IMG/VR virus record: IMGVR_UViG_3300047554_000187
Span: 1-49,037 of that record
Direction: 5' to 3' (one strand)
Length of the DNA stretch: 49,037 bases
Source: a virus
Every line of letters begins with the position of its first letter. Position 1 is the first letter of the stretch. Below, one piece after another: positions 1 to 49,037 of the stretch. Position numbers and translations under genes: made by a program. Below the pieces are notes generated by a model. That model was not told the origin of the DNA. It saw only the letters and a program-made list of their open reading frames with translations, and searched no databases.

Positions 1-175
1 CTGACACCTCGTGTCCTGCTTCTTGCAAGAACTCCTCTAGGATGTTTTTAACGCCAAACTCTAAGTTTCTGTTGCCAGCAAGTGCTCCAATCTGTACATT
101 ATTCTGTACAGATGCTACGGTTATTTCCTGTGGTTTCATAAACCAGAAGAGCAGTATGCTTAACAGTAATCTCAT
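1..175 (-). CDS. N-terminal part of the large polyvalent protein (runs off the left end)
   Basis: The frame starts at ATG 175 and stays open to base 1 (58 codons plus one base). It begins with a hydrophobic stretch (MRLLLSILLFWF), then a second Met at base 139 (MKPQEITVA), then a helical, charged segment. The start lies 2 bases after the stop of the upstream gene, which suggests translational coupling. If the molecule is circular, the frame runs exactly in phase into the open frame at base 49,037 and gives one protein of 1892 residues. Taken alone it could be a short secreted protein, but the in-phase join makes the fusion more likely. Either Met could be the true start. Starting at 139 removes the hydrophobic segment. 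Confidence 0.65.
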   Translation of the reverse strand, partial: MRLLLSILLFWFMKPQEITVASVQNNVQIGALAGNRNLEFGVKNILEEFLQEAGHEVS

Positions 176-4006: not shown

Positions 4007-7000
4007 TTACTTTGCTAATAATTGTTTAACTAAGCCTTTTAATTCCTCTATTTCTAATTGCTGAGATTCAATGTGAGACTGCTGCTCTTTTATGGCTTCA
4101 ATAAAAATACCAGCCATATTCCCGTAAGATACAGATAGCATACCATCAGGTTGCTCTTGAACTACTTCTGGTAATACTGCTTGAGTTTCTTGAGCTATCA
4201 CTCCAATTTTTGTAGCAGCATCTCCGTTGTCCGTTCTTTTATAACTTACTCCTCTTAAAGATATTACAGTATTTAGTGCATTAGTCAATGTCTTAATATC
4301 AGTTTTAATACGAACATCTGAATATGCCGTAACATCACCCCCTGCTGTTAATGAGCCTTTTATCCAAGCTGTGCCATCATTCTTTACTTCAAAGGAAGCA
4401 TTACCTGTACCACTCCCCATTACAGCAAAACCTTCATTGGAGCCTCCGCCACAATAAAAGATGTTCTTTAAGGCAGCTCCTAGATTACCAGTATTTGTAG
4501 TGGTTCTAGTTTTGATACCCCAAGCACCTTCTTCGTTATTAAAGACTATCCAGGAATCTCCGTTTACTAAGAACTTACTAGCCTGGATATTGTTAGCAGA
4601 ATAAATTCCTCCATTATTATAAACTATAAAAGGTTGAGCTCCTGTATCTACATCTTTCATTACAATAGCCCTGACTACCTGTCCGCCAACAGGGCGACCA
4701 TCAGTACTTCTAACTTCAAAACCATATGCTGGCGAATAAAGACCATTACCATTATCTTGATAACCTAATATAAGTCTACCACCATTTGATGTAGTTCCTA
4801 TACTATTAGGTGTAGCTGTGCCGCCCCATAAACCATCTGAAGTATAACTAGTATAGAAACCAAAATCACCAGATAAAGTGTAACCACCGTTGTTTCTAAT
4901 TCTTCTTTTAACAAAAAGACCATTACCTGCGACATCTGCGCCAAGTGACATTAAGCAGACTTCTGCGCTATTTTCCCAAATAAAACTATTACTAGCGCCA
5001 AGATATATTCTACTTCTTAGGGAGTGCGAACCAGAGCCATCTAACGCGTTACAAGTAGTTCCTCCTGCAATAGAAGTAGTTCCTCCTGTCGCCATATATA
5101 TAGCCCAGTTAGGGTCTGAAGAAGTCCACATAAATATACCTCGGTCAGAACCTCCATTACTTCCATTCTGTACAACAATCTTAGAACCTCCTGTAGCTGA
5201 TAAAAATCCAGAAGCGGATAATCCAGAGAAGGAACTATAAGATGTATAGTTTCCTGCGTGAAGAGCTACATTGGTTCCATTTATGTATAATGTATTCGAA
5301 ACATAAACCGCCCCAGATGGAGTGGAAAGGTTCATATTGACGTCATCTATAGGCTGAATACTATTTTTGTATGTACCCTGACCAATTAAAAGGTTTCCAA
5401 ATCTTGAAGATGCTGATGTGTTGGTTATAGCTCCACTCATTGTGCCTCCAGAAAGGGGCAGTGCGTAAGACGAATAACTAGCAGTGTCTAAAACATCATA
5501 AAATGTACTTCCTCCTCTACGTTGTTTAAAGGTTCCTTCTGCCCAACCATTGCCGTTAGCATTAAGATACATAGAGCCACTAACTATAAACCTATAGCCT
5601 GTATTTGGGTCTTGACCAACGCCAACATAGTTGTCTAACCTTACATTACCTACGTCGTCTTGATAGTATCCTCTAATGTTTTCGGCATCTGAATTTCTTC
5701 TTGTGTAGATAGCAAACTGCCCTCCAACCCCGTTACTTACTCCTGTTGCTCTAATGACAGCTCTATGATGGTCTCCTCCAGCATTAACAACCGAAAATCC
5801 TATACTAGCCCCAAGTTCTGCTCCGCTATTATTTGCCTTTAAAAATAAAGTGTTGTGGAATAAACTTGTTTGGCTATAAGTATGAGTAATCGTGACACCA
5901 TAAGATGTACCAGTAGATGCAGTGCTGCCTCTTGACACTACTGTTCCAAAGGTATCAGTCTCTGTATATCCTGTAATATAACCAGGTCCATTAGTAAGCT
6001 GGTTAAGGTTAGTAAGACTTACGCTATCCCAAATAGTCCTCCAAGCTACTCCTGAATAACTTGTACTAGAAGATGGTCTCCAGTATGCATTGCCATTGTA
6101 ACTAAAGTATACTTGTGTCGAAATATCTGTATTCCAAAATCCTAATAATGTACCATAAGTAGATGGAGCATTAGTTGCTACTCCTAAATTATATATACCA
6201 GATGTTCCAGATAGTCCAAGTGTATTTACGTCGCCAGTAAATCTAGTTGTTGTGCCATTAAAATTTAATCCGCTCCATTGACCAATAATGTTTCCAACAA
6301 AATTTCCTGAATTCATAGTTAATCCAGAATCATTCATTGTCATTATCTTAGTCCAACCTCCGCCGCCAGTCCCTCCACTATTTCTCCAGAATGCAAATTC
6401 TCCAGCTGTTGCATCAATTGCAGCAAAAGGAATATTTGCTCCATTTGCATCAACACCACCCCACCATACAGATGAATTAGTTGTTGAACCCCTAAACATT
6501 GTGCTTCTATAAGTTGAGGCGGCGCCTAATATATTTCCAAATGTCTCCGAGCTTGCGCCTGAATTAAAAAGAACAGTATTTGATGTAGCTCCAGACGTTC
6601 TTAAAAGTCCAGCTATATTAACTATGCCATCATTCCGAACTCTCATTACTTCAGTAAATGTAGTAGTCGTACTCTTACCAAATGTAATGCCGCCAGACGC
6701 ATCTCCACCAGCTCCTGAATGTATTCTTAATTCAGAATTTTGGACCTGAATACCATATCTGTCTCCAGGTGAAGTAGTAGTATGGTAAAAATCTATTTTG
6801 TTGCCTGTAACATTTGAAAATGCTAACAAGCCAGTCATAGTGCCACCAGCTAATGGTAGCTTAGTGCTGTCTGTTGAAGCAACGCTACCTACTGTAATAA
6901 CATTACCAGAAGAGTCAAATGCCAAGTATCCCGCAGCAGTTCCAGACCAAGAAGTAGCCGTCTGATATGTGTTAAGCTTAAGTTGACCATCACTAGTAAT

Positions 7001-9775
7001 AATAGCTCTAGTAGCAATACCACTTCTTACAAAGCTTAAATTGTTAGATGCATCTACGTTGACATGCCAAATTTGAGTACCTGTTTTTTGTAAACCTATA
7101 CTGCCATTTACAGTTAAAGTTTCTCCTGGACTTGTAGTACCAACACCTACGTTACCAGCAGGAGATAAATACATTGTAGCAGCAGGGGCAGTATTAGCAG
7201 CAGATGTTAAAAATCTAATGGCTCCGCCACCTGTAGCATCTCCACTTGATATAATATCAAATACTCTAGTATAATTATTGCTTGCAGGAAAATTTTGTGC
7301 CTGATAGAAATATGTTATACCCTTATCTTGATTTGAAGTATATGTTACTACAGATGTTTGATTACCTGTGTTAGGGTATTGCATTTGCCCAGTACTAGTA
7401 ATACGCTTACGTTCGTTATTACCAGCAATCATTACCATTGCATTAGTTTCACTTCGTAATCTTACATTCCCTGCAGTTGTATTAGTATCTTTAAGCCATA
7501 TATCTGCTTTTGTTGCTGCACTAGAGAATAGTGCTATATCTCCATTTGCAGAAGAATCATAAACTTCAAGTTTTACAGATGAACTAGGCGAAGTAGTTCC
7601 GATTCCTACGTTGCCACCTTGAATGGTCATTCTGATATTTCCAGTAGTTGACTCCTTAAAATAAAGAGCACTTTCTCCTGATGAAGGAATTATTTGCCAA
7701 GCACCACCACCTCTATTTACATTTAAATCAGTTGCCGTAACACTACTTGAGAACGTGGCTGCTCCTGTGGATGACATTGAAAATACATTAGACCCTCCAC
7801 CATTTACTCTAAAATTAATCCCTTGTCCTGTTGCAGCGTTTAAGTATAATCCATCAGATGCATCATTTGCAGCAAAAATTCTATTATATCCATTTGAATT
7901 GCCACCAAATGCAAATGTTCTATATGCTCCACCAAATGTTGTATCTGTTCCAATTATAGTTCCATTTATTGCAACATTACCTGTAAATCTGCCTGTGCCA
8001 TTTACATCAAGTTTATAGCCTGAGTCTGTGGTAGTACCCAAAAGAGTATTACCTGTAAGAACCATTGTGTTTCCTAAATGGTCAATAAGGAACCTATCAG
8101 CTAGAACGCCAGCAGAGCCTTCTCCTCTAGTTGCAATTCTAAAGTAACCTCTGGCTTCTCCGTCTGGAGAAGAGTTTACTAGACCGTTATAGTACCCTGT
8201 ATAGCCAATTCTAGCGTGAGGGTATGACCCTACTACAGAATTGGCATCTATAGTTACAAAGTCAATGTCTACAGTTCCGTCAACACCTAAGTCTGAACCA
8301 TAATTAGTAAGCAACAAAGCTGTACTCTGAGAATTTCTAGCATCTCCTGGATTAACTGTATTAGTATTAATACGCACAAAACCAGATGGACCTGTGTATA
8401 AACTATTGGCAGCTGTACCAAAAGTTGCTCCTAAGCTAGAGGAATTTCCTCTTGTTAAGATGCTAGATAATGTATCTGTTTCAGTATATGATGTTAAATA
8501 AGTAGAGCTATCTACCGAGCCATCCGCTTTTAAGAATTGCGCTGATGTACCACCTGATTTAATAAAGGATACAGCCGTAACATTGCCAGAACCAGAAAAT
8601 CTAACTCGCTCTACAGGTGCGGCTCCAGCCACATCATTTAATGAGAACACAAGGTCCATATTAGTTGATGTGCGAACAGCATCAATAAATACTTTACCTC
8701 CGTTAGTATTATTAAACGGGTCAGAAGTTGCTGCGGCTACTAAACGAACCGTAGTACCCACTGTAGTATCTAGATTCATTGCACGAATTGCTTCGAATAT
8801 ACCAGCAGCAGATGTTTTCATTAAATGAACAGAACCATCTGCAAGTCTTGCCTCTGATGAAGTATAAGTAGATGTATTAACTGTACCTCCGTTTACTGCT
8901 AAATTGCTAGTAAATTCAGAATTCCCAGTCGTATAAATCTTAAATCTTCCAACAGAGTTTGTTACATCATATACTGTAAACGTGCCATCTGTGTTAGAGA
9001 TGAAATAGTCTGGGTTATTGTCTGTATCTGTAAAGTATAAGCGAGGGTTGGTTCCTGATAGAGTTAAATCTCCTGTAAGTGTACCGCCTACTAAAGGCAA
9101 GTAATTTGCCCCATTAGCTGGAGTATATCCTAATGCCGCTGCAATAGTTTTATTCTTCCAAAGGCTAGTAGCTGATTCCCAGACAAGAGTGTGGTTATTT
9201 GCTAAAGAAGAGATAGATACATCGTGGATTTCATCTAGTTCATATCCATTCTGAATCTTAACCTCAATCTGTCCTAAAGTCGGATGCGAGCGAGTCACAA
9301 TGCCAACGTAAACTAAGTGCGCAGGAGCTAATTGCTTTGTAGAAGTATATGTTCCAGCAGTTGTAGATGAAAGATATAATTGTACACCTTCCGTAAAAGT
9401 AGAAGTATCTAAGCCAGTTATATCGCCTACACAAACTACATTTCCATTTGAGTTATTGGCAATATCAGTTTGACACAAACCAAAAGTTTGAGCAGAAGTA
9501 GAATCTCCTGTCGCAATCGCTTTGGAAACAGTAGCTTTATTGCCAGTAGCTCCAGAGATATATACAACCGTACCTTTTGTTAACGTAGCACCAGTTGTAT
9601 TTCTTACTTCTCTAATTAATGTACCAGCAACAGCAGTTACGTTAGGGGCGTTATAATCAGTACCCGCAACAGCAGCAACCAATTTACCGTTAGCATCAGT
9701 TTTAAGTAAAGAAGAGGTTACACTCGTCTGGGAGATATAACCTGTTACATCTGCGTTTTTTAAAAACTTAGTCAT
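4007..9775 (-). CDS. Giant tail fibre with C-terminal intramolecular chaperone (peptidase S74), 1922 aa
   Basis: This very long Gly/Ser/Thr/Asn-rich protein contains repeated fibre segments such as LPLAGGTMTGLL, LPLVGGTLTGDL and LPLSGGTMSGAI, typical of trimeric phage fibres. The last 104 residues form an S74 chaperone: SDVRIKTDIKTL (S1819 as nucleophile candidate), IGVIAQETQAVLPEVV and a coiled-coil end (QSHIESQQLEIEELKGLVKQ). In known members the domain drives trimerisation and then cuts itself off just before the Ser. The final 24 residues fit the coiled coil. The frame is intact throughout. It should be the main receptor-binding or enzymatic fibre. No depolymerase motif was recognised in the body. 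Confidence 0.92.
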   Translation of the reverse strand: MTKFLKNADVTGYISQTSVTSSLLKTDANGKLVAAVAGTDYNAPNVTAVAGTLIREVRNTTGATLTKGTVVYISGATGNKATVSKAIATGDSTSAQTFGLCQTDIANNSNGNVVCVGDITGLDTSTFTEGVQLYLSSTTAGTYTSTKQLAPAHLVYVGIVTRSHPTLGQIEVKIQNGYELDEIHDVSISSLANNHTLVWESATSLWKNKTIAAALGYTPANGANYLPLVGGTLTGDLTLSGTNPRLYFTDTDNNPDYFISNTDGTFTVYDVTNSVGRFKIYTTGNSEFTSNLAVNGGTVNTSTYTSSEARLADGSVHLMKTSAAGIFEAIRAMNLDTTVGTTVRLVAAATSDPFNNTNGGKVFIDAVRTSTNMDLVFSLNDVAGAAPVERVRFSGSGNVTAVSFIKSGGTSAQFLKADGSVDSSTYLTSYTETDTLSSILTRGNSSSLGATFGTAANSLYTGPSGFVRINTNTVNPGDARNSQSTALLLTNYGSDLGVDGTVDIDFVTIDANSVVGSYPHARIGYTGYYNGLVNSSPDGEARGYFRIATRGEGSAGVLADRFLIDHLGNTMVLTGNTLLGTTTDSGYKLDVNGTGRFTGNVAINGTIIGTDTTFGGAYRTFAFGGNSNGYNRIFAANDASDGLYLNAATGQGINFRVNGGGSNVFSMSSTGAATFSSSVTATDLNVNRGGGAWQIIPSSGESALYFKESTTGNIRMTIQGGNVGIGTTSPSSSVKLEVYDSSANGDIALFSSAATKADIWLKDTNTTAGNVRLRSETNAMVMIAGNNERKRITSTGQMQYPNTGNQTSVVTYTSNQDKGITYFYQAQNFPASNNYTRVFDIISSGDATGGGAIRFLTSAANTAPAATMYLSPAGNVGVGTTSPGETLTVNGSIGLQKTGTQIWHVNVDASNNLSFVRSGIATRAIITSDGQLKLNTYQTATSWSGTAAGYLAFDSSGNVITVGSVASTDSTKLPLAGGTMTGLLAFSNVTGNKIDFYHTTTSPGDRYGIQVQNSELRIHSGAGGDASGGITFGKSTTTTFTEVMRVRNDGIVNIAGLLRTSGATSNTVLFNSGASSETFGNILGAASTYRSTMFRGSTTNSSVWWGGVDANGANIPFAAIDATAGEFAFWRNSGGTGGGGWTKIMTMNDSGLTMNSGNFVGNIIGQWSGLNFNGTTTRFTGDVNTLGLSGTSGIYNLGVATNAPSTYGTLLGFWNTDISTQVYFSYNGNAYWRPSSSTSYSGVAWRTIWDSVSLTNLNQLTNGPGYITGYTETDTFGTVVSRGSTASTGTSYGVTITHTYSQTSLFHNTLFLKANNSGAELGASIGFSVVNAGGDHHRAVIRATGVSNGVGGQFAIYTRRNSDAENIRGYYQDDVGNVRLDNYVGVGQDPNTGYRFIVSGSMYLNANGNGWAEGTFKQRRGGSTFYDVLDTASYSSYALPLSGGTMSGAITNTSASSRFGNLLIGQGTYKNSIQPIDDVNMNLSTPSGAVYVSNTLYINGTNVALHAGNYTSYSSFSGLSASGFLSATGGSKIVVQNGSNGGSDRGIFMWTSSDPNWAIYMATGGTTSIAGGTTCNALDGSGSHSLRSRIYLGASNSFIWENSAEVCLMSLGADVAGNGLFVKRRIRNNGGYTLSGDFGFYTSYTSDGLWGGTATPNSIGTTSNGGRLILGYQDNGNGLYSPAYGFEVRSTDGRPVGGQVVRAIVMKDVDTGAQPFIVYNNGGIYSANNIQASKFLVNGDSWIVFNNEEGAWGIKTRTTTNTGNLGAALKNIFYCGGGSNEGFAVMGSGTGNASFEVKNDGTAWIKGSLTAGGDVTAYSDVRIKTDIKTLTNALNTVISLRGVSYKRTDNGDAATKIGVIAQETQAVLPEVVQEQPDGMLSVSYGNMAGIFIEAIKEQQSHIESQQLEIEELKGLVKQLLAK

Positions 9776-24251: not shown

Positions 24252-25169
24252 ATGGCAACTCAAGCAGAATTAATCGACCAAATCAACGACACTATTATCG
24301 CAGGCTTACAATCTAAAGGCTTGCAATGGTTTAAACCTTTCAAGGATAGCGTAACCAATCAATGGAGCGCGTTACGCTCAAATGGAGCGCCTTACAAGGG
24401 TATTAATCAGTTCATCCTATCAGCCAAGGCAATCGATAAGGGGTGGGTTAATAAGTGGTTCACCTTCGCTCAAGTGAGCAAGCTAGATGGGCGAGTTAAC
24501 AAGGGCGAGAAGTCTACGGATGTATACCTTTGGAAGGTCAACTTTGCGGTAGAGATAGCGGGTAAAGTTCAGTATTTCGATAAGCTAGAAAAAGTACCCG
24601 CACACCTACAAAAAGATGCTAAGAAAACGTTCTACCTACAGACATTCAAGGTGTTCTCTATCTCTCAGACGAGCCTGCCCATCGACACGCCTTCGCAACC
24701 TATCGAGGTAACAGAACTAGAGGCGGACGCAAACGCTGAGGCTATCCTAGAGGCTTGGACAAAGGAGGTAACCCTTAAGCATAGCGGACAAGGTCGCGCT
24801 TACTATTCGCCTAGCGGTGACTACATCCATATGCCCGCAAAGACAACGGAGCAATGGAAATCGAACGGGGATTACTACAAGGTATTCTTTCACGAAGCTA
24901 TCCACTCTACGGGTCACGAGTCTAGACTTAATCGCTTAGACAAGACGGCAAACTTTGGCTCTGACGAGTATTCTAAGGAGGAGTTGGTAGCTGAGTTAGG
25001 CGCGCTATATTTAGAGGCTATCACGGGCATTCAAGCAATCGTTGACGATGTCAAGAATTCGCAAGCATACATCAACGGATGGATTAGCAAATTGAAGTCT
25101 GACCCTAAGTTAATTATGAGTGCATCTACCAAGGCTCACGAAGCGGTAGAGTTAATCTTATCAAAGTAA
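24252..25169 (+). CDS. ardC: ArdC-like anti-restriction protein: ssDNA-binding domain plus zinc metallopeptidase, 305 aa
   Basis: The N-terminal 140 residues match the ArdC/DUF1738 domain (WFKPFKDSVTNQWSALRSNG, PYKGINQFILS, LYLW-type KSTDVYLWKV). The C-terminal domain has a zincin motif HEAIHSTGH (H214, E215, H218) with the acidic helix EELVAELGALYLE (about 243-255) as likely third ligand. ArdC-type proteins bind single-stranded DNA and protect incoming DNA from restriction. Full length and intact motifs suggest an active protein. As an early gene it fits protection of entering phage DNA. Confidence 0.88.
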   Translation: MATQAELIDQINDTIIAGLQSKGLQWFKPFKDSVTNQWSALRSNGAPYKGINQFILSAKAIDKGWVNKWFTFAQVSKLDGRVNKGEKSTDVYLWKVNFAVEIAGKVQYFDKLEKVPAHLQKDAKKTFYLQTFKVFSISQTSLPIDTPSQPIEVTELEADANAEAILEAWTKEVTLKHSGQGRAYYSPSGDYIHMPAKTTEQWKSNGDYYKVFFHEAIHSTGHESRLNRLDKTANFGSDEYSKEELVAELGALYLEAITGIQAIVDDVKNSQAYINGWISKLKSDPKLIMSASTKAHEAVELILSK

Positions 25170-35519: not shown

Positions 35520-35612
35520 AGTCAGGTAGCTTAAAGGTCATAAGGAAATTGACCCTTGAGGATTAGAGCACTCGAAAGAGATGAGGTGCGGGTTCGATTC
35601 CTGTCCTGACTA
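35520..35612 (+). ncRNA. tRNA-like element 3, 93 nt, non-standard body
   Basis: AGTCAGG (35520-35526) pairs perfectly with CCTGACT (35605-35611), followed by A as discriminator. T arm: GCGGG, loop TTCGATT, CCTGT (35588-35604), with two G-U pairs. The body does not give a normal D and anticodon arm. Its strongest helix is GGTCA / TGACC around a 9-base loop, and there is a CTC-GAAA-GAG tetraloop hairpin. A serine- or leucine-type long variable arm was considered, but no plausible anticodon loop was found. No CCA is encoded (ACTA follows). Confidence 0.5.
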
Positions 35613-35673
35613 CTAGAGAGAACCGTTAGTTTTCGGCTGTTTACAACTGGAAAACTAGCAGACGTCATACTCT

Positions 35674-42921: not shown

Positions 42922-43389
42922 TTACTTAAAAGTTAAGCGGTATAGTGTTTGCTCCGTTAATGCTTTAATCTCATCTAAGATGTTTAATAAAGCAGTGTTG
43001 CCCATTACTAACATTCTAGCTTCTCCAGAGATGTATCCCTTAAATGAAGTTAAGAATGCTACAGGAGCGTCCATTGTATATGGCTTAACCTCAAGCTCGC
43101 AACCTAACATAATACGACCATAACAACCTTGGTATGCCTCAATGAATTTATCCATTAAGTCATTGAATCCTTCGTAGAACTCACCCATTGCCTCGTGCTC
43201 TGCGAAAGAAGAAGTTTGCCAATGGAAAACTTTTGCCTGCGCCGACGCTTCTAACATCTCACATAATAACTCTTCTTGAGGCGATTCGCCTGATTCAGAT
43301 TCGCCTGCAGGTTGTGAGTAATCACTCATTAATTTTGAGAATGCTTGCTTCTGAGCACCCATCTTCTGCATTTCTATTAAACTTGCCAT
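42922..43389 (-). CDS. Ferritin-like/Dps-like phage protein (DUF5856-type), 155 aa
   Basis: ATG 43389 (MASLIEMQKMGAQKQAFSKL) follows a purine-rich GAAGAAGAAGTAAT leader. The region AQAKVFHWQTSSFAEHEAMG, FYEGFNDLMDKFIEAYQGCY reads as a four-helix bundle. HWQ...EH.A...FY (H, E and D residues) resembles Dps/ferritin ligands; T4-like and crAss-like phages have such DUF5856 proteins. An iron-oxidising role for phage DNA protection is possible; function not proven. Confidence 0.7.
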   Translation of the reverse strand: MASLIEMQKMGAQKQAFSKLMSDYSQPAGESESGESPQEELLCEMLEASAQAKVFHWQTSSFAEHEAMGEFYEGFNDLMDKFIEAYQGCYGRIMLGCELEVKPYTMDAPVAFLTSFKGYISGEARMLVMGNTALLNILDEIKALTEQTLYRLTFK

Positions 43390-43390
43390 A

Positions 43391-43537
43391 TTACTTCTTC
43401 TTTTTCGATGCAAGATACTTAAAATAATTCACTTGTTTTTCACGCTTTTCTATACCTGCTTTAGTCTTAGCAGTTCCAAGGTTCTTGCCAGTTGTTTTGG
43501 ATACTAACTTGTAGCCTCCAGCGGTTTTCTTTATCAT
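43391..43537 (-). CDS. Small basic late protein, 48 aa
   Basis: MIKKTAGGYKLVSKTTGKNL, GTAKTKAGIEKREKQVNYFK, ending in a Lys run. The pattern 'K..GGY.LVSK..GKNLG...TK..A..R..QV.YFK' is common in phage proteins of this size. The ATG overlaps the stop of the large polyvalent gene (ATGA). Confidence 0.75.
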   Translation of the reverse strand: MIKKTAGGYKLVSKTTGKNLGTAKTKAGIEKREKQVNYFKYLASKKKK

Positions 43538-46500
43538 TTCTTCTTTATCGTTTTTGCTTTTAATTCTTGCAATTTTTTAATCATTTCTTGAGGCTCTTGT
43601 GATTCTCCAACGATTTCCAACATACGACCCTGTAATTCGATTGCTAAATCAGAATACTCATCTTGAATTTCTTTAATTCTAGCGTCCTTGTTAGCTTCAC
43701 TTTTTATCTTACCTGTGTCATAAAGATATCTTGTGTTATCAATTTCTTGCAATGATTTCTTCTCTTTTGCTTTCCAGCTGTTTATAATATCTCCTACCTC
43801 ATAATCCATAGTATTTAAATATCTAGAATACTTATCTACTAAAATATCTGGATTAATCTCCTCATTCTTAACCGCAATACTTAACATTGCGTTTAATGGA
43901 TTATTTATCTGCCCTTTGTAATTAGATTTCTCATTAAAGGCATCCATCATTGATTCTGCCCAAGCAGCGTATGGAGTTCCCCAAGAACGCATAACGTGAT
44001 TGACTGAGTTAAACCATCTTTGTTTACTAGAAACTGTTTGAGAGTTAAATCTACTAGCTCTTGGGTCATCTATTCGAAGACCACTATTATCAATATTAAA
44101 TGCTGCTTGAGCAATTGGTCCTGATAATGGGTCAGAAAACTTAGGCATATAACCTGAGCCAAATACTCCATTCCCTTTTCCTAAGTATTGAACTTGTAAT
44201 GGAGTATATTCAGACATATCTGAAATCAAGTTGCCTTTATAACCCTTATCATACATACTATATGGAGAAAGATATCTAGCAACGTTGTATTCATTATTAC
44301 CAATCTTCCATCCAAATGAAACATCTAAATCTCCTACTTTTAATTTTGTAGTATATGGTCTATTTTCGCGCGCTTCTCTTTCTTCATCTGATTCTCCAGA
44401 AGCTTTAGAGAATGCTCGTGCTAATCCAGCCATCATTGCAACAGACATCACGCCCCATATAGGTCTTTCCTTAAATGAGTTATACAATATCCTCATTGAG
44501 TCAGGCTTAAATTTGATGAATGCATTACCTATTATTGGTAATTTAGCAGCAAGCTTGAATCCATTAGGAACTGTATTATAGTTCTGCATTTGTTTAGCAG
44601 TCATATCTATGGCTTCCTCTTTTGTTAATCCATAGTTCTCAACTAATGTTCTATAATATGCAATCTTTGTAATATCGTCAACCTTACCATATGTGTCAGA
44701 TAACAATTTATCAACCGTCTCATAAGCTTGAGCACCCTTATCTCCAATTACCCCTCTGATAATATTAAGACCTTGCGATTCTTTGCTTGCCTTTTTAATA
44801 TCTAATCCAGAAAGTTGTCCACCTAAAAGACCCGCCTTACTCAATTCTTGAGCCCAAGTATCGTATGTATCTAACGACTTTCTTGCATCTGGCTTTCTAG
44901 TAAATAATGTAATAGGGTCAACGCCTCCCATCATACTAAAGAAGTATCCTGAAATTACGTTGGCTGCTCTTGTTAATGGGCTACCTACAGTTTTAAGCTT
45001 CTTAGTAAATTGTCTAAGGAACATATTATCATACTTAGTACTTATGTCATCAACTCTAGACATAAATTCTGTGACAAACTGTGTTCCATACAGTTGCTCA
45101 TAAATCTGCAATGGTACATACTTATTTGTTAAGTCCCCAAATCTCTTAGGATTGCCGTTACCGTTTAATTTCTTATAATACTTTTGATTTTTTTCTGGAA
45201 CCTCCGAAAGCTTGCTATATGACTTATAGTTAGGGTCATTGCTAACCTTTTGCGCAAAGTCAAATATAGCCTTGTTATGAGCCATCATTCCCATCCTTTT
45301 TATTGTAATGTAGATAGGGTCTGATAAACTTAAGCTATCGTGTATCTTATCAAAGTCTTTTCTTTTTCTGAACATATTAAATTCAGCTCCAGCCTTAGAC
45401 TTCTTTATTGCATCATATATATCTCCGTATTGCTTCTCTTCTATTTGTCTGTATGTACGAGCAAAGTACTTCCCTTTATTTTTCTCGTATGTATTTTGGT
45501 CTAAGAATCCATTTCTATAGTGCCACTCGTGAATAAAATCATTGGTAGCTCGTAAGTAATTAAATAAACGTAGTTCATTAAATGAAAGGTCTTCTACATT
45601 CTTAGGCAATCCCTCTTGTGGTTCCTTTGCGAAAGCTTCAGGGTCTAAAAGGGAGTGAACTCTATATAGTGCACGAGTATCGTTTCCTATCATATTGTTC
45701 ATTCTTTCGCCAATCTGAGTAAGTAAATTATTAGAGTTATTCTTGCCTCCAAATAATTCTCTTCTCGCTTTTTGAAACTCTTCACTTGTTGTAAGGTTTG
45801 TAACAAAAGTCTCAGTAAAATGCTGCAATTCTTTTGCGGCAACATTATTTGAATTCTGAGCCTTAACAAATAATCCTTTTATAGCATCCTCAGTATAACC
45901 AATAGCATCCTTCCATACACTATTCAAAGACAGTTCTTTAGATATAGGATTACCATTTTTGTCTTTAGTGTTTACCTTAACAAGCGTCGCGTTACCGACC
46001 TTTCTTATGCCACCAAATCCAGCGCCTAACCCTTTTGCAAGGCTTCTAGTAATCATATTATCTGCGATTGCTTCGCTTGCATTTCGATAGCCTTTCATCA
46101 CAAATCCCATTTCCTTTGCAGTCTTCTCATCGCTTAATTGGTCAGCTAAATGTGAGAACATTTCATCGGGATTTTCAAACATAGTATCCATCTTATATGG
46201 ATTAGATGTCTGAGACTTAGACTTAGTTCCAGTTGTCTTTGTAATAATTACTCCAGCGGCTCCAAAGGAATTATTCTTTTCTACGGTAGCATTATCGCCT
46301 AATATTCCTTTTACATATTCAACAAGCTCATTCCCGTCATAACCTTTTTGGAATACATCAATGATTTTACCATCTTGCTTTCTTTTAATAATGTAGCTCT
46401 TAGGCTCAGGACCTAATTCAAAGTTCTTTGCGCCATCAATATCTCCAGCAAATTTTCTTGAACTAATTACGGCTGTACCATTTTCGTTTAAGTGAGCAAA

Positions 46501-49037
46501 AATGTCGGCAACAATGAAATCTCTGACATCCTTTGGAACTACGTTCAATACGTTTAAAGAAACGATTCCGTCAAACATCCCTTTGATATCCTCCGACTTA
46601 GTATAGTTAACTTCTTTTCTACCCTTCCATCTTTCTGGATTAATCTCATATGACTCAACATCCTTAGTAAGAACGTCGCTCATCGCATCCGTACCCAATC
46701 CAAGTCCAGCACCATAGTCTAAAATTCTGCCACCAACATTTAATCCCTTTAAGATATTAGCAGCCTTAGCATAACTTCCTACAGTAGTAGCAACTTGTGT
46801 AGTTCCTGATGCCTTAGAAAGCTCCTTATCAATAGCCTGAGACTTAGACTTAGTAGCGCTAATCTTGCCAGACGCGCTGCTTAATTTAGCAGTTCTGTTG
46901 TATTGCGCAACGGCAATAGTTTCTTTTTTATGCTTATCTAAGTAGTCATTCCAAGTAAACTCTTTTCCACTTGACTGAGTAAGAGTAGGCACAACGTCTT
47001 TCATTGCGTAAGCTCCGTCTAATATAGCAACCTCTATCTTAGCAGGACTTCCATCTGGATTTACCGCATATATTTCTACAGGATAAGACTTGTGATAGAA
47101 GCTGTCATCTGGGCTAGTTGTCTTATATTTAAGCTCACCCTTTGTTCTCATTACTGTAACAAGGTCTCCGATATTTTCTGCCTTACTAGTAATTGGCTCT
47201 TCAAATCTTTTAGCTGTTTCAGTGATAGAGCCAGCTGAAGGAAACCTTCTTTCTTTTACTTTAGGGTCTCCAAGCAATGTTTCTACAATAGTTTTTCTCT
47301 CTTCAAATGAAAAGTTAGATATAGGCTTCTTGTCTGCGCCTAATATAGGATTACCATTGTTGTCTAAAACATTGTTTCCTTCTTGGAATAAAATATACTC
47401 AAGCTCATTAAACAGCGTTGTTATACTGTTCGACTTATTTAATACATTTTTTAATACAGGCTTTTTATTCTTAACTCCTTCGCGGTCAAATGCTTTATTT
47501 AAAGAGTCAATAATGTCTTGCTTTTTAACTTTTGAAGAACGGCTGTTAGCATCTGACTTCATTAATTCAACAGTAACTGCAAGCATATCAGTGTTACTCA
47601 TATGTTGCTTATCTGAACCAACCATAGGTGCAGAATAAACATATCCGTCAGCATCTCTATTTTTATTTGCACTTTCTGCAATAGACTTTGCCTTAGACTC
47701 ATTTCTTGAAGCCCACCACTTACCAGTAATTATTGGGAAATAAACTCCTCCATAAAACTTATATAATGGATTGCCTTCAGTGTTCTCAATGTATCCTCCA
47801 ATCATTCTATCGGATTCCATTAAGTTTACTGTTTTATTATTAAATTCAGAAAGAGGCACATTCTCTATAACAGATGCATTTTCGTTTACAGGGAATCTCT
47901 TAATTTCCCCTGAGCTAATTGAGCTTTTTGAACGAGTTGCATTTTCAGCATTTATGTTTCCAGATAAACCTAATGAGTTTATTCCTGCTGTTTCTTGAAT
48001 TTTAGAGATAGTCTCTTCGCTCACACCAGTTCCTTGTCTTATCGACTCAGAAATAGTGTTCATAAAGTCTATAATATCCTTTGTATCCTTAGTGTCTTGG
48101 AATACAGTTATAGCACCATTTGTAAGATTAGAAACAACCTCGTTAATCACAGAAGCTATTCTTTGTATTGTAGTTGGCGCTATGCTTTTTTCTTGTTGCT
48201 CTAATATACCTGTTAACTCAGTAACATATTCTTCATAAGAAGCTTCTTCACTGTATTGTTGTATAAAATCAGACAACTCCTTATTAGTGTCTCCGTCTAC
48301 AGCCTTAGCAAGCTTATCTTTGAAGCTTTTAAACACAGCTGGATTATCACCAAATGCTCTTAACAATATAGCGTGAGCCACCTCGTGAGCGACTGTTCTT
48401 CCATTAGCTTTTGTAAGGTTTATATCAATCTTACCTGAATAGCTCCCATCTTCATTTTGGTCATAAGAAAAATTACCTCGGCTTCCTTCAATCCCGTTAA
48501 CATTCTTCATCTCCTCATTATAACTAGCTTCGTCATTATGAATAACGATGTCAAAATTAGGAAGGACAGATTTTAATGTTTGCAATGCTGCTTTCGCAGA
48601 TTTAAGTATTTTTATCTTATTGTTACTTTCATTATCTATAACTTGAGCATTCTCATCTAGAGAAGGCAAAGGAATATCCATTGTAGATATTGATTGACCT
48701 TTTGAAGGTTGCTGATTTTGTTGTTCAGCCTGCGGAGCTTGTTCTGGAGCTACCTCTCTTGTATAAGTTTCTCCTTGACCAAAGTCATTGTCAAAAGCGT
48801 TTTCAATTAAAGATAATGCCTCATTCTTTGTCGATGCTGGTAATATTCTATCAGTTACCTTATTTCTAACGTACCACCTTCCATCTGTTCCATTCTGTTC
48901 TAATCCAGCCTTTCCGCCCCTATTGTCGACTACTTCAAAGTCTCCCTTCCATTCCTTTTTGTTTTCAGGAGCTGTTTCATAAACAAACTCTTCTGTTTTA
49001 TTAGGAGCTTTTGCAGGAGATGGCTGTGGCGCAGGAG
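43534..49037 (-). CDS. Large polyvalent protein: zinc metallopeptidase, methyltransferase and C-terminal phage domain (runs off the right end)
   Basis: The frame stays open to base 49,037, and on a circular molecule it continues in phase from base 1, giving 1892 residues. In that numbering, zincin motif VAHEVAHAILL has HEVAH at 276-280. An uncharacterised part (about 440-680) follows. A Rossmann-type methyltransferase occupies about 817-992, with GGRILDYGAGLGLGTD (motif I, from 827), ESYEINPER (acidic loop) and FDGIVSLNVLNVVP (motif IV-like). The C-terminal third is helical, with a hydrophobic stretch (WGVMSVAMMAGLARAF), similar in style to LPD38-type ends of large polyvalent proteins. Such proteins are thought to be ejected with DNA to counter host defences. 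Its late position agrees with packaging into the virion. Confidence 0.75.
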   Translation of the reverse strand, partial: PAPQPSPAKAPNKTEEFVYETAPENKKEWKGDFEVVDNRGGKAGLEQNGTDGRWYVRNKVTDRILPASTKNEALSLIENAFDNDFGQGETYTREVAPEQAPQAEQQNQQPSKGQSISTMDIPLPSLDENAQVIDNESNNKIKILKSAKAALQTLKSVLPNFDIVIHNDEASYNEEMKNVNGIEGSRGNFSYDQNEDGSYSGKIDINLTKANGRTVAHEVAHAILLRAFGDNPAVFKSFKDKLAKAVDGDTNKELSDFIQQYSEEASYEEYVTELTGILEQQEKSIAPTTIQRIASVINEVVSNLTNGAITVFQDTKDTKDIIDFMNTISESIRQGTGVSEETISKIQETAGINSLGLSGNINAENATRSKSSISSGEIKRFPVNENASVIENVPLSEFNNKTVNLMESDRMIGGYIENTEGNPLYKFYGGVYFPIITGKWWASRNESKAKSIAESANKNRDADGYVYSAPMVGSDKQHMSNTDMLAVTVELMKSDANSRSSKVKKQDIIDSLNKAFDREGVKNKKPVLKNVLNKSNSITTLFNELEYILFQEGNNVLDNNGNPILGADKKPISNFSFEERKTIVETLLGDPKVKERRFPSAGSITETAKRFEEPITSKAENIGDLVTVMRTKGELKYKTTSPDDSFYHKSYPVEIYAVNPDGSPAKIEVAILDGAYAMKDVVPTLTQSSGKEFTWNDYLDKHKKETIAVAQYNRTAKLSSASGKISATKSKSQAIDKELSKASGTTQVATTVGSYAKAANILKGLNVGGRILDYGAGLGLGTDAMSDVLTKDVESYEINPERWKGRKEVNYTKSEDIKGMFDGIVSLNVLNVVPKDVRDFIVADIFAHLNENGTAVISSRKFAGDIDGAKNFELGPEPKSYIIKRKQDGKIIDVFQKGYDGNELVEYVKGILGDNATVEKNNSFGAAGVIITKTTGTKSKSQTSNPYKMDTMFENPDEMFSHLADQLSDEKTAKEMGFVMKGYRNASEAIADNMITRSLAKGLGAGFGGIRKVGNATLVKVNTKDKNGNPISKELSLNSVWKDAIGYTEDAIKGLFVKAQNSNNVAAKELQHFTETFVTNLTTSEEFQKARRELFGGKNNSNNLLTQIGERMNNMIGNDTRALYRVHSLLDPEAFAKEPQEGLPKNVEDLSFNELRLFNYLRATNDFIHEWHYRNGFLDQNTYEKNKGKYFARTYRQIEEKQYGDIYDAIKKSKAGAEFNMFRKRKDFDKIHDSLSLSDPIYITIKRMGMMAHNKAIFDFAQKVSNDPNYKSYSKLSEVPEKNQKYYKKLNGNGNPKRFGDLTNKYVPLQIYEQLYGTQFVTEFMSRVDDISTKYDNMFLRQFTKKLKTVGSPLTRAANVISGYFFSMMGGVDPITLFTRKPDARKSLDTYDTWAQELSKAGLLGGQLSGLDIKKASKESQGLNIIRGVIGDKGAQAYETVDKLLSDTYGKVDDITKIAYYRTLVENYGLTKEEAIDMTAKQMQNYNTVPNGFKLAAKLPIIGNAFIKFKPDSMRILYNSFKERPIWGVMSVAMMAGLARAFSKASGESDEEREARENRPYTTKLKVGDLDVSFGWKIGNNEYNVARYLSPYSMYDKGYKGNLISDMSEYTPLQVQYLGKGNGVFGSGYMPKFSDPLSGPIAQAAFNIDNSGLRIDDPRASRFNSQTVSSKQRWFNSVNHVMRSWGTPYAAWAESMMDAFNEKSNYKGQINNPLNAMLSIAVKNEEINPDILVDKYSRYLNTMDYEVGDIINSWKAKEKKSLQEIDNTRYLYDTGKIKSEANKDARIKEIQDEYSDLAIELQGRMLEIVGESQEPQEMIKKLQELKAKTIKKK

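What the first reader, a model, noticed from the sequence alone, without database searches (positions are those of the whole stretch)
43534..49037. 1.9-kaa late protein combining a HExxH metallopeptidase and an in-line methyltransferase
HEVAH (276-280 in the joined protein) lies upstream of a clear class I methyltransferase core (GGRILDYGAGLGLG, EINPE, NVLNVV), with a long uncharacterised linker and C-terminal helical domain. Polyvalent proteins of phages carry varied enzyme domains. A protease plus methyltransferase in one late gene suggests an ejected anti-defence protein able both to cleave a host target and to methylate DNA or protein.
Basis: partly seen in the sequence, partly recalled or inferred. 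Interest (0 to 1): 0.72.

Follow-up and report, generated by a model that had tools for sequence, protein, structure and literature searches.

The report
Phage cargo protein with protease and methyltransferase
The sequence holds most of one very large late phage protein that joins a predicted self-cutting zinc protease to a methyltransferase of a type found almost only in phages; such proteins are probably packed into the virus particle and delivered into the host, which extends a known class ('polyvalent proteins') with a cargo enzyme not described for it in the paper consulted.

Summary
The minus-strand frame 43534-49035 encodes a zincin domain (HEVAH, aa 217-221 of 1833) and, about 510 residues later, a class I SAM methyltransferase. 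The '1.9-kaa joined protein' is an artefact: relatives carry the left-edge piece in a separate gene about 16 kb away and have 62-66 kb records, so the window is a fragment and the gene continues past its right end. The zincin model is confident (pLDDT 85); HExxH and a glutamate pair are invariant in 17 aligned homologues. The methyltransferase lacks NPPY-type DNA-methylase motifs and belongs to a phage family (313 viral matches, 3 in bacterial bins). Twenty-seven giant phage proteins carry both domains, zincin always first. A close relative (terminase 97%) lacks the whole zincin-methyltransferase block; others carry ART-PolyVal, LPD38 or LPD23 at the same locus. It is thus a polyvalent protein (Iyer 2017) with a cargo that paper does not describe. 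Most likely mechanism, inferred: packaged, ejected, cut by its own zincin, the methyltransferase then modifying a target other than a DNA base. Virion presence, catalysis and target are untested.

The parts
43534..49035 (-). Giant late gene, 5' end missing (open at the window edge); 1833 aa present of probably about 2600
48757..48993 (-). N-terminal piece (aa 15-93) shared at 62% with residues 783-861 of the 1758-aa protein of G025
48001..48648 (-). Zincin-like metallopeptidase domain, about aa 130-345
   Evidence: conserved in 39 giant proteins; AF2 pLDDT 85
48373..48387 (-). HEVAH zinc-binding motif (aa 217-221)
   Evidence: H, E, H invariant in 17 aligned homologues
48229..48234 (-). Invariant EE pair (aa 268-269), candidate third zinc ligand
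46861..48003 (-). Middle region (about aa 345-725), shared with L003 at 57-60%, function unknown
46210..46848 (-). Class I SAM methyltransferase domain (aa 730-942)
   Evidence: Pfam Methyltransf_23; fold match Z 14.6
46693..46734 (-). SAM-binding motif I GGRILDYGAGLGLG (aa 768-781)
43537..46203 (-). C-terminal region (aa 945-1833), conserved in alleles without the enzymes and similar at 28% to phi38:1 gp101, annotated structural protein

Best explanation
This is most of a phage-type polyvalent protein: a very large late-gene product built from an N-terminal region (outside the window), a zincin-like peptidase, exchangeable enzyme cargo (here a class I SAM methyltransferase) and a C-terminal region. 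SHOWN by sequence and models: both domains with conserved key residues; the late-gene position; swapping of the enzyme block between close relatives; zincin before methyltransferase in all 27 proteins that have both. INFERRED: the protein is packed in the particle and enters the host with the DNA; the zincin cuts the polyprotein in cis so that the methyltransferase is released; the freed methyltransferase modifies a host or phage target other than a DNA base (protein, tRNA or small molecule) early in infection. The target is not known. Membership of the polyvalent class is the strong part (about 0.85); the whole chain of steps is weaker, hence the overall figure.
For: Zincin profile, invariants and confident model. 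Methyltransferase by Pfam, PDB profile and fold. Late cluster: the giant gene follows tail-region genes in relatives; relatives are annotated as structural proteins. Polyvalent domains ART-PolyVal, LPD38, LPD23 at the same locus in relatives. Cassette behaviour: G025 (terminase 97%) lacks aa 107-942 with both flanks adjacent. Alleles without cargo (G025, phi38:1) also lack the zincin, as expected if it serves the cargo. The published model for this class is self-processing by the zincin (PMC5512222). No DNA-methylase motif.
Against: No direct proof of packaging, ejection, cleavage or methylation. The window gene is incomplete. Zincin matches to solved folds are weak (Z 6.2 at best). The C-terminal region is not recognisably a known polyvalent domain. 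Stand-alone methyltransferase genes show that the domain does not need release from a polyprotein.
Confidence: 0.6

Rival explanations
1. One reading: an ejected anti-defence protein whose protease cleaves a host target and whose methyltransferase methylates phage DNA against restriction.
For: Zincins of this class may act as effectors in some cases, and the DarB-type DNA methylases of polyvalent proteins are antirestriction factors (PMC5512222). The genome also encodes an ArdC homologue, so antirestriction matters to this phage.
Against: No NPPY-type motif in 45 homologues, no helicase or LPD36 partner seen, nearest folds are small-molecule and N-methyltransferases.
Confidence: 0.15
2. The methyltransferase acts during assembly, modifying capsid, portal or packaged proteins, and the zincin matures the virion protein before packaging; nothing enzymatic need happen in the next host.
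For: Stand-alone or short copies lie next to portal and head genes in MJing1, CRP-738 and Myrna. P1 DdrB is cut before packaging (PMC5512222). Methylated virion proteins exist in Cellulophaga phages, though these phages are said to encode no methyltransferase (PMC13288928).
Against: Fusion to exchangeable giant cargo and presence/absence between near-identical phages do not suggest an assembly step that all need.
Confidence: 0.18
3. The domains are decayed passengers in a structural protein, without catalytic activity.
For: Some relatives (G025, phi38:1) have neither domain.
Against: Catalytic-type residues are kept at 95-100% across diverse homologues, and the methyltransferase also persists as a separate gene.
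Confidence: 0.05

Closest known systems
Phage-type polyvalent proteins (Iyer et al. 2017, PMC5512222)
   Same: Giant late-gene protein, zincin-like peptidase plus an unrelated enzyme in one chain, relatives with ART-PolyVal, LPD38 and LPD23.
   Different: The methyltransferase is not the EcoKI/TaqI-type DNA adenine methylase with LPD36 and SNF2 helicase described there.
Phage P1 DarB / DdrB
   Same: Head-associated multidomain proteins with methylase (DarB) or C-terminal zincin (DdrB), by the cited paper.
   Different: DarB's methylase is a DNA adenine methylase with a helicase; no sequence relation shown here.
Cellulophaga phage phi38:1 gp101 (Pervagoviridae) and Flavobacterium elemo structural protein
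   Same: phi38:1 gp101 shares the C-terminal 700 aa (28%); the elemo protein shares the zincin and part of the middle region.
   Different: phi38:1 gp101 has no zincin or methyltransferase; the elemo protein has no methyltransferase of this family.
Class I N-methyltransferases such as CalS10, TylM1, glycine N-methyltransferase (PDB)
   Same: Class I fold (VIA Z 12-14.6).
   Different: 8-18% identity; fold similarity only, no shared substrate implied.
TIGR04096 DNA phosphorothioation-associated putative methyltransferase
   Same: 4 of 11 homologues match weakly, best 6e-8.
   Different: The window copy itself does not match at E 0.1; a lead only.

Membership tests
Phage-type polyvalent protein | Two or more domains of unrelated activity in one polypeptide | tested here: met
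   Zincin and class I methyltransferase in one frame
Phage-type polyvalent protein | Located among late/virion genes | tested here: met
   Gene order in relatives and in the window; relatives annotated structural
Phage-type polyvalent protein | Company of known polyvalent domains | tested here: met
   ART-PolyVal, LPD38, LPD23 in relatives at the same locus; none by Pfam in the window copy itself
Phage-type polyvalent protein | Packaged and delivered with the DNA | not testable with these tools
   Needs virion proteomics
Zincin-like metallopeptidase (polyvalent type) | HExxH plus glutamate on a later helix | tested here: met
   Invariant in 17 aligned sequences
Zincin-like metallopeptidase (polyvalent type) | N-terminal helix, three strands, HExxH helix, later helix | tested here: met
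   AF2 model pLDDT 85; topology as described in PMC5512222
Zincin-like metallopeptidase (polyvalent type) | Match to a solved zincin fold or one of the 12 published clades | tested here: inconclusive
   Best rows are zincin-fold domains of lethal-factor-like proteins at Z 5.2-6.2; clades not available here
Class I SAM-dependent methyltransferase | Motif I GxGxG, acidic residue after strand 2, Rossmann-type fold | tested here: met
Polyvalent DNA adenine methylase (DarB type) | NPP(Y/F) active-site motif | tested here: not met
   Absent in 45 non-redundant homologues, which have S/N-LNVLNVV at that place
LPD38 (C-terminal region) | Profile similarity to LPD38 | tested here: inconclusive
   hhalign against LPD38-bearing relatives E 0.73; no Pfam hit

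The most novel reading that the evidence does not exclude
A phage-specific family of virion-delivered class I methyltransferases, exchanged as cassettes between giant proteins of phages of several bacterial phyla, modifies a host protein, RNA or metabolite in the first minutes of infection: a counter-defence or takeover enzyme unlike the known antirestriction DNA methylases.
Probability: 0.35. Interest if true: 0.7.

Novelty: new variant of a known kind. Interest (0 to 1): 0.47.

Why it matters
It points to a widespread, nearly phage-only methyltransferase family in probable virion-delivered proteins, with a ready natural comparison: closely related phages with and without the zincin-methyltransferase block. 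It makes testable whether a methylation other than DNA methylation is part of early infection.

Tried and rejected
Circular join of the window ends: rejected. DNA-methylase reading: no motif. Direct similarity of the zincin to the ArdC peptidase in the same window: hhalign not significant. C-terminal region as LPD38: not significant. A viral-collection scan with the C-terminal region alone found no confirmed relative; relatives came from whole-record searches. PHROGs gives no family for the window protein. The first multi-domain AF2 model is poor overall (pLDDT 56); only its methyltransferase part was used for fold matching, and the zincin was refolded alone. Foldseek of the zincin against the PDB had no match with E <= 0.001; the best BFVD matches are large phage proteins, including a Flavobacterium elemo structural protein. 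Globin rows match only the helical half and were set aside. PADLOC was not scanned. Paper searches for virion-associated methyltransferases of this kind gave nothing specific, within an open-access library only.

Full report
WHAT IS THERE. The minus-strand frame 43534-49035 is open at the right end of the window and gives 1833 aa. HEVAH is at aa 217-221, the methyltransferase motif I at 768, EINPE at 797 and NVLNVV at 828.

THE JOIN IS AN ARTEFACT. The window has no terminal repeat. Phages with terminases 94-99% identical to the window's have records of up to 62-66 kb. The 58-aa left-edge piece matches eight relatives at 89-98%, always inside a separate frame of 157-179 codons; where read in L107 and L109, this is a 152-aa gene starting with the same methionine. 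In G025 it lies about 16 kb from the giant gene. In relatives the giant gene follows genes of about 1230, 325 and 500 aa that are missing from the window. Window aa 15-93 match residues 783-861 of the 1758-aa G025 protein at 62%, so about 770 N-terminal residues probably lie outside the window.

ZINCIN. Profiles built from the domain find it in 39 of the large proteins examined. H, E, H and a following EE pair are invariant in 17 aligned sequences; a second alignment of 23 gives the same core. AlphaFold2 with that alignment gives pLDDT 85 and pTM 0.80, with the order helix, three strands, HExxH helix, later helix with the glutamates. This is the core described for the zincins of polyvalent proteins (PMC5512222). 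The nearest solved folds are zincin-fold domains of lethal-factor-like proteins, but only at Z 5.2-6.2; sequence profiles find nothing convincing. The fold assignment therefore rests on motif conservation and predicted topology.

METHYLTRANSFERASE. Pfam Methyltransf_23 matches at 2.8e-6, above its cutoff, and matches 10 of 11 homologues. The profile reaches phosphoethanolamine and type 11 methyltransferases in the PDB at about 1e-4. The model aligns with sugar and glycine N-methyltransferases, best Z 14.6 over 167 residues at 4.3 A. Across 45 non-redundant homologues T746, T751, Y755, G775, G777, E797, N828, N831, R838, R860, D865, Q896-K-G and E903 are kept at 95-100%, and no NPPY-type motif occurs. 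A scan of viral contigs gave 313 relatives; a scan of 84,980 bacterial and archaeal species genomes gave 3, all on short metagenome-bin contigs. The two scans used slightly different patterns and collections, so the ratio is a guide, but the family is clearly one of phages. It also occurs as separate genes of about 190-230 aa, directly after the portal gene in Microcystis phage MJing1, and inside proteins next to portal or head genes in CRP-738 and Myrna.

MODULAR SWAPPING. The window protein is a mosaic. Its zincin and middle region are closest to L003 (57-60% over aa 133-738), whose protein has no methyltransferase; its methyltransferase is closest to L115, L007 and others (about 70%); its C-terminal region is closest to G025 and G032 (49-50%) and reaches phi38:1 gp101 at 28%. 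G025, with 97% terminase identity, lacks aa 107-942: the flanking parts are adjacent. Other relatives of the same phage group carry ART-PolyVal, LPD38 or LPD23. Twenty-seven proteins, some closely related to each other, have both zincin and methyltransferase, and the zincin is always upstream. In these the methyltransferase is 54-72% and the zincin 24-54% identical to the window's copies, as expected if the domains move separately; unequal constraint may contribute.

HOW IT PROBABLY WORKS. Iyer et al. propose that such proteins are delivered with the DNA and that the zincin cuts them into working units (PMC5512222). The present data fit this: the zincin is the recurrent element, the cargo changes, and alleles without cargo lack the zincin too (G025, phi38:1). 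Inferred steps are packaging, ejection, self-cleavage and methylation of a target other than a DNA base. The mass-spectrometry study of Cellulophaga phages (PMC13288928) reports more protein methylation in infected cells, but those phages are said to encode no methyltransferase, so it is background only.

COMPARISON AND NOVELTY. Membership of the polyvalent class is met on composition, gene position and domain company; packaging could not be tested. The methyltransferases described in that paper are EcoKI/TaqI-type DNA adenine methylases, a membership that this domain fails. I therefore call it a new variant of a known kind. The paper's supplementary domain lists were not available here, so an earlier mention of this methyltransferase cannot be excluded.

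LIMITS. All functional steps are predictions. The window gene is incomplete. 'Structural protein' labels in relatives are annotations, in phi38:1 by similarity. Counts of loci include close relatives.

Noticed in passing
24252-25169 (+): Homologue of the antirestriction protein ArdC over its full length (PDB ArdC, E 6e-42), itself with an HExxH peptidase; a second probable anti-defence gene in the same phage.
   Followed up: partly
1-174 (-): Left-edge frame is the start of a separate 152-aa gene conserved in relatives, not the start of the giant gene.
   Followed up: yes
42922-43413 (-): Small gene of about 155 aa always directly after the giant gene in relatives; no PDB match; function unknown.
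   Followed up: no
4007-9775 (-): 1922-aa tail fibre protein by PHROGs.
   Followed up: no
L105:6888-14276: A relative's giant protein carries ART-PolyVal (2e-19) and LPD23 at the same locus, so the locus exchanges several effector types.
   Followed up: partly
35520-35613 (+): ARAGORN reports one tRNA-like gene with an unassigned anticodon.
   Followed up: no
L193:382-984: A 3.3-kb contig filed in a Sphingomonadaceae bin carries the methyltransferase at 65% within a long open frame; probably a misbinned phage contig.
   Followed up: no
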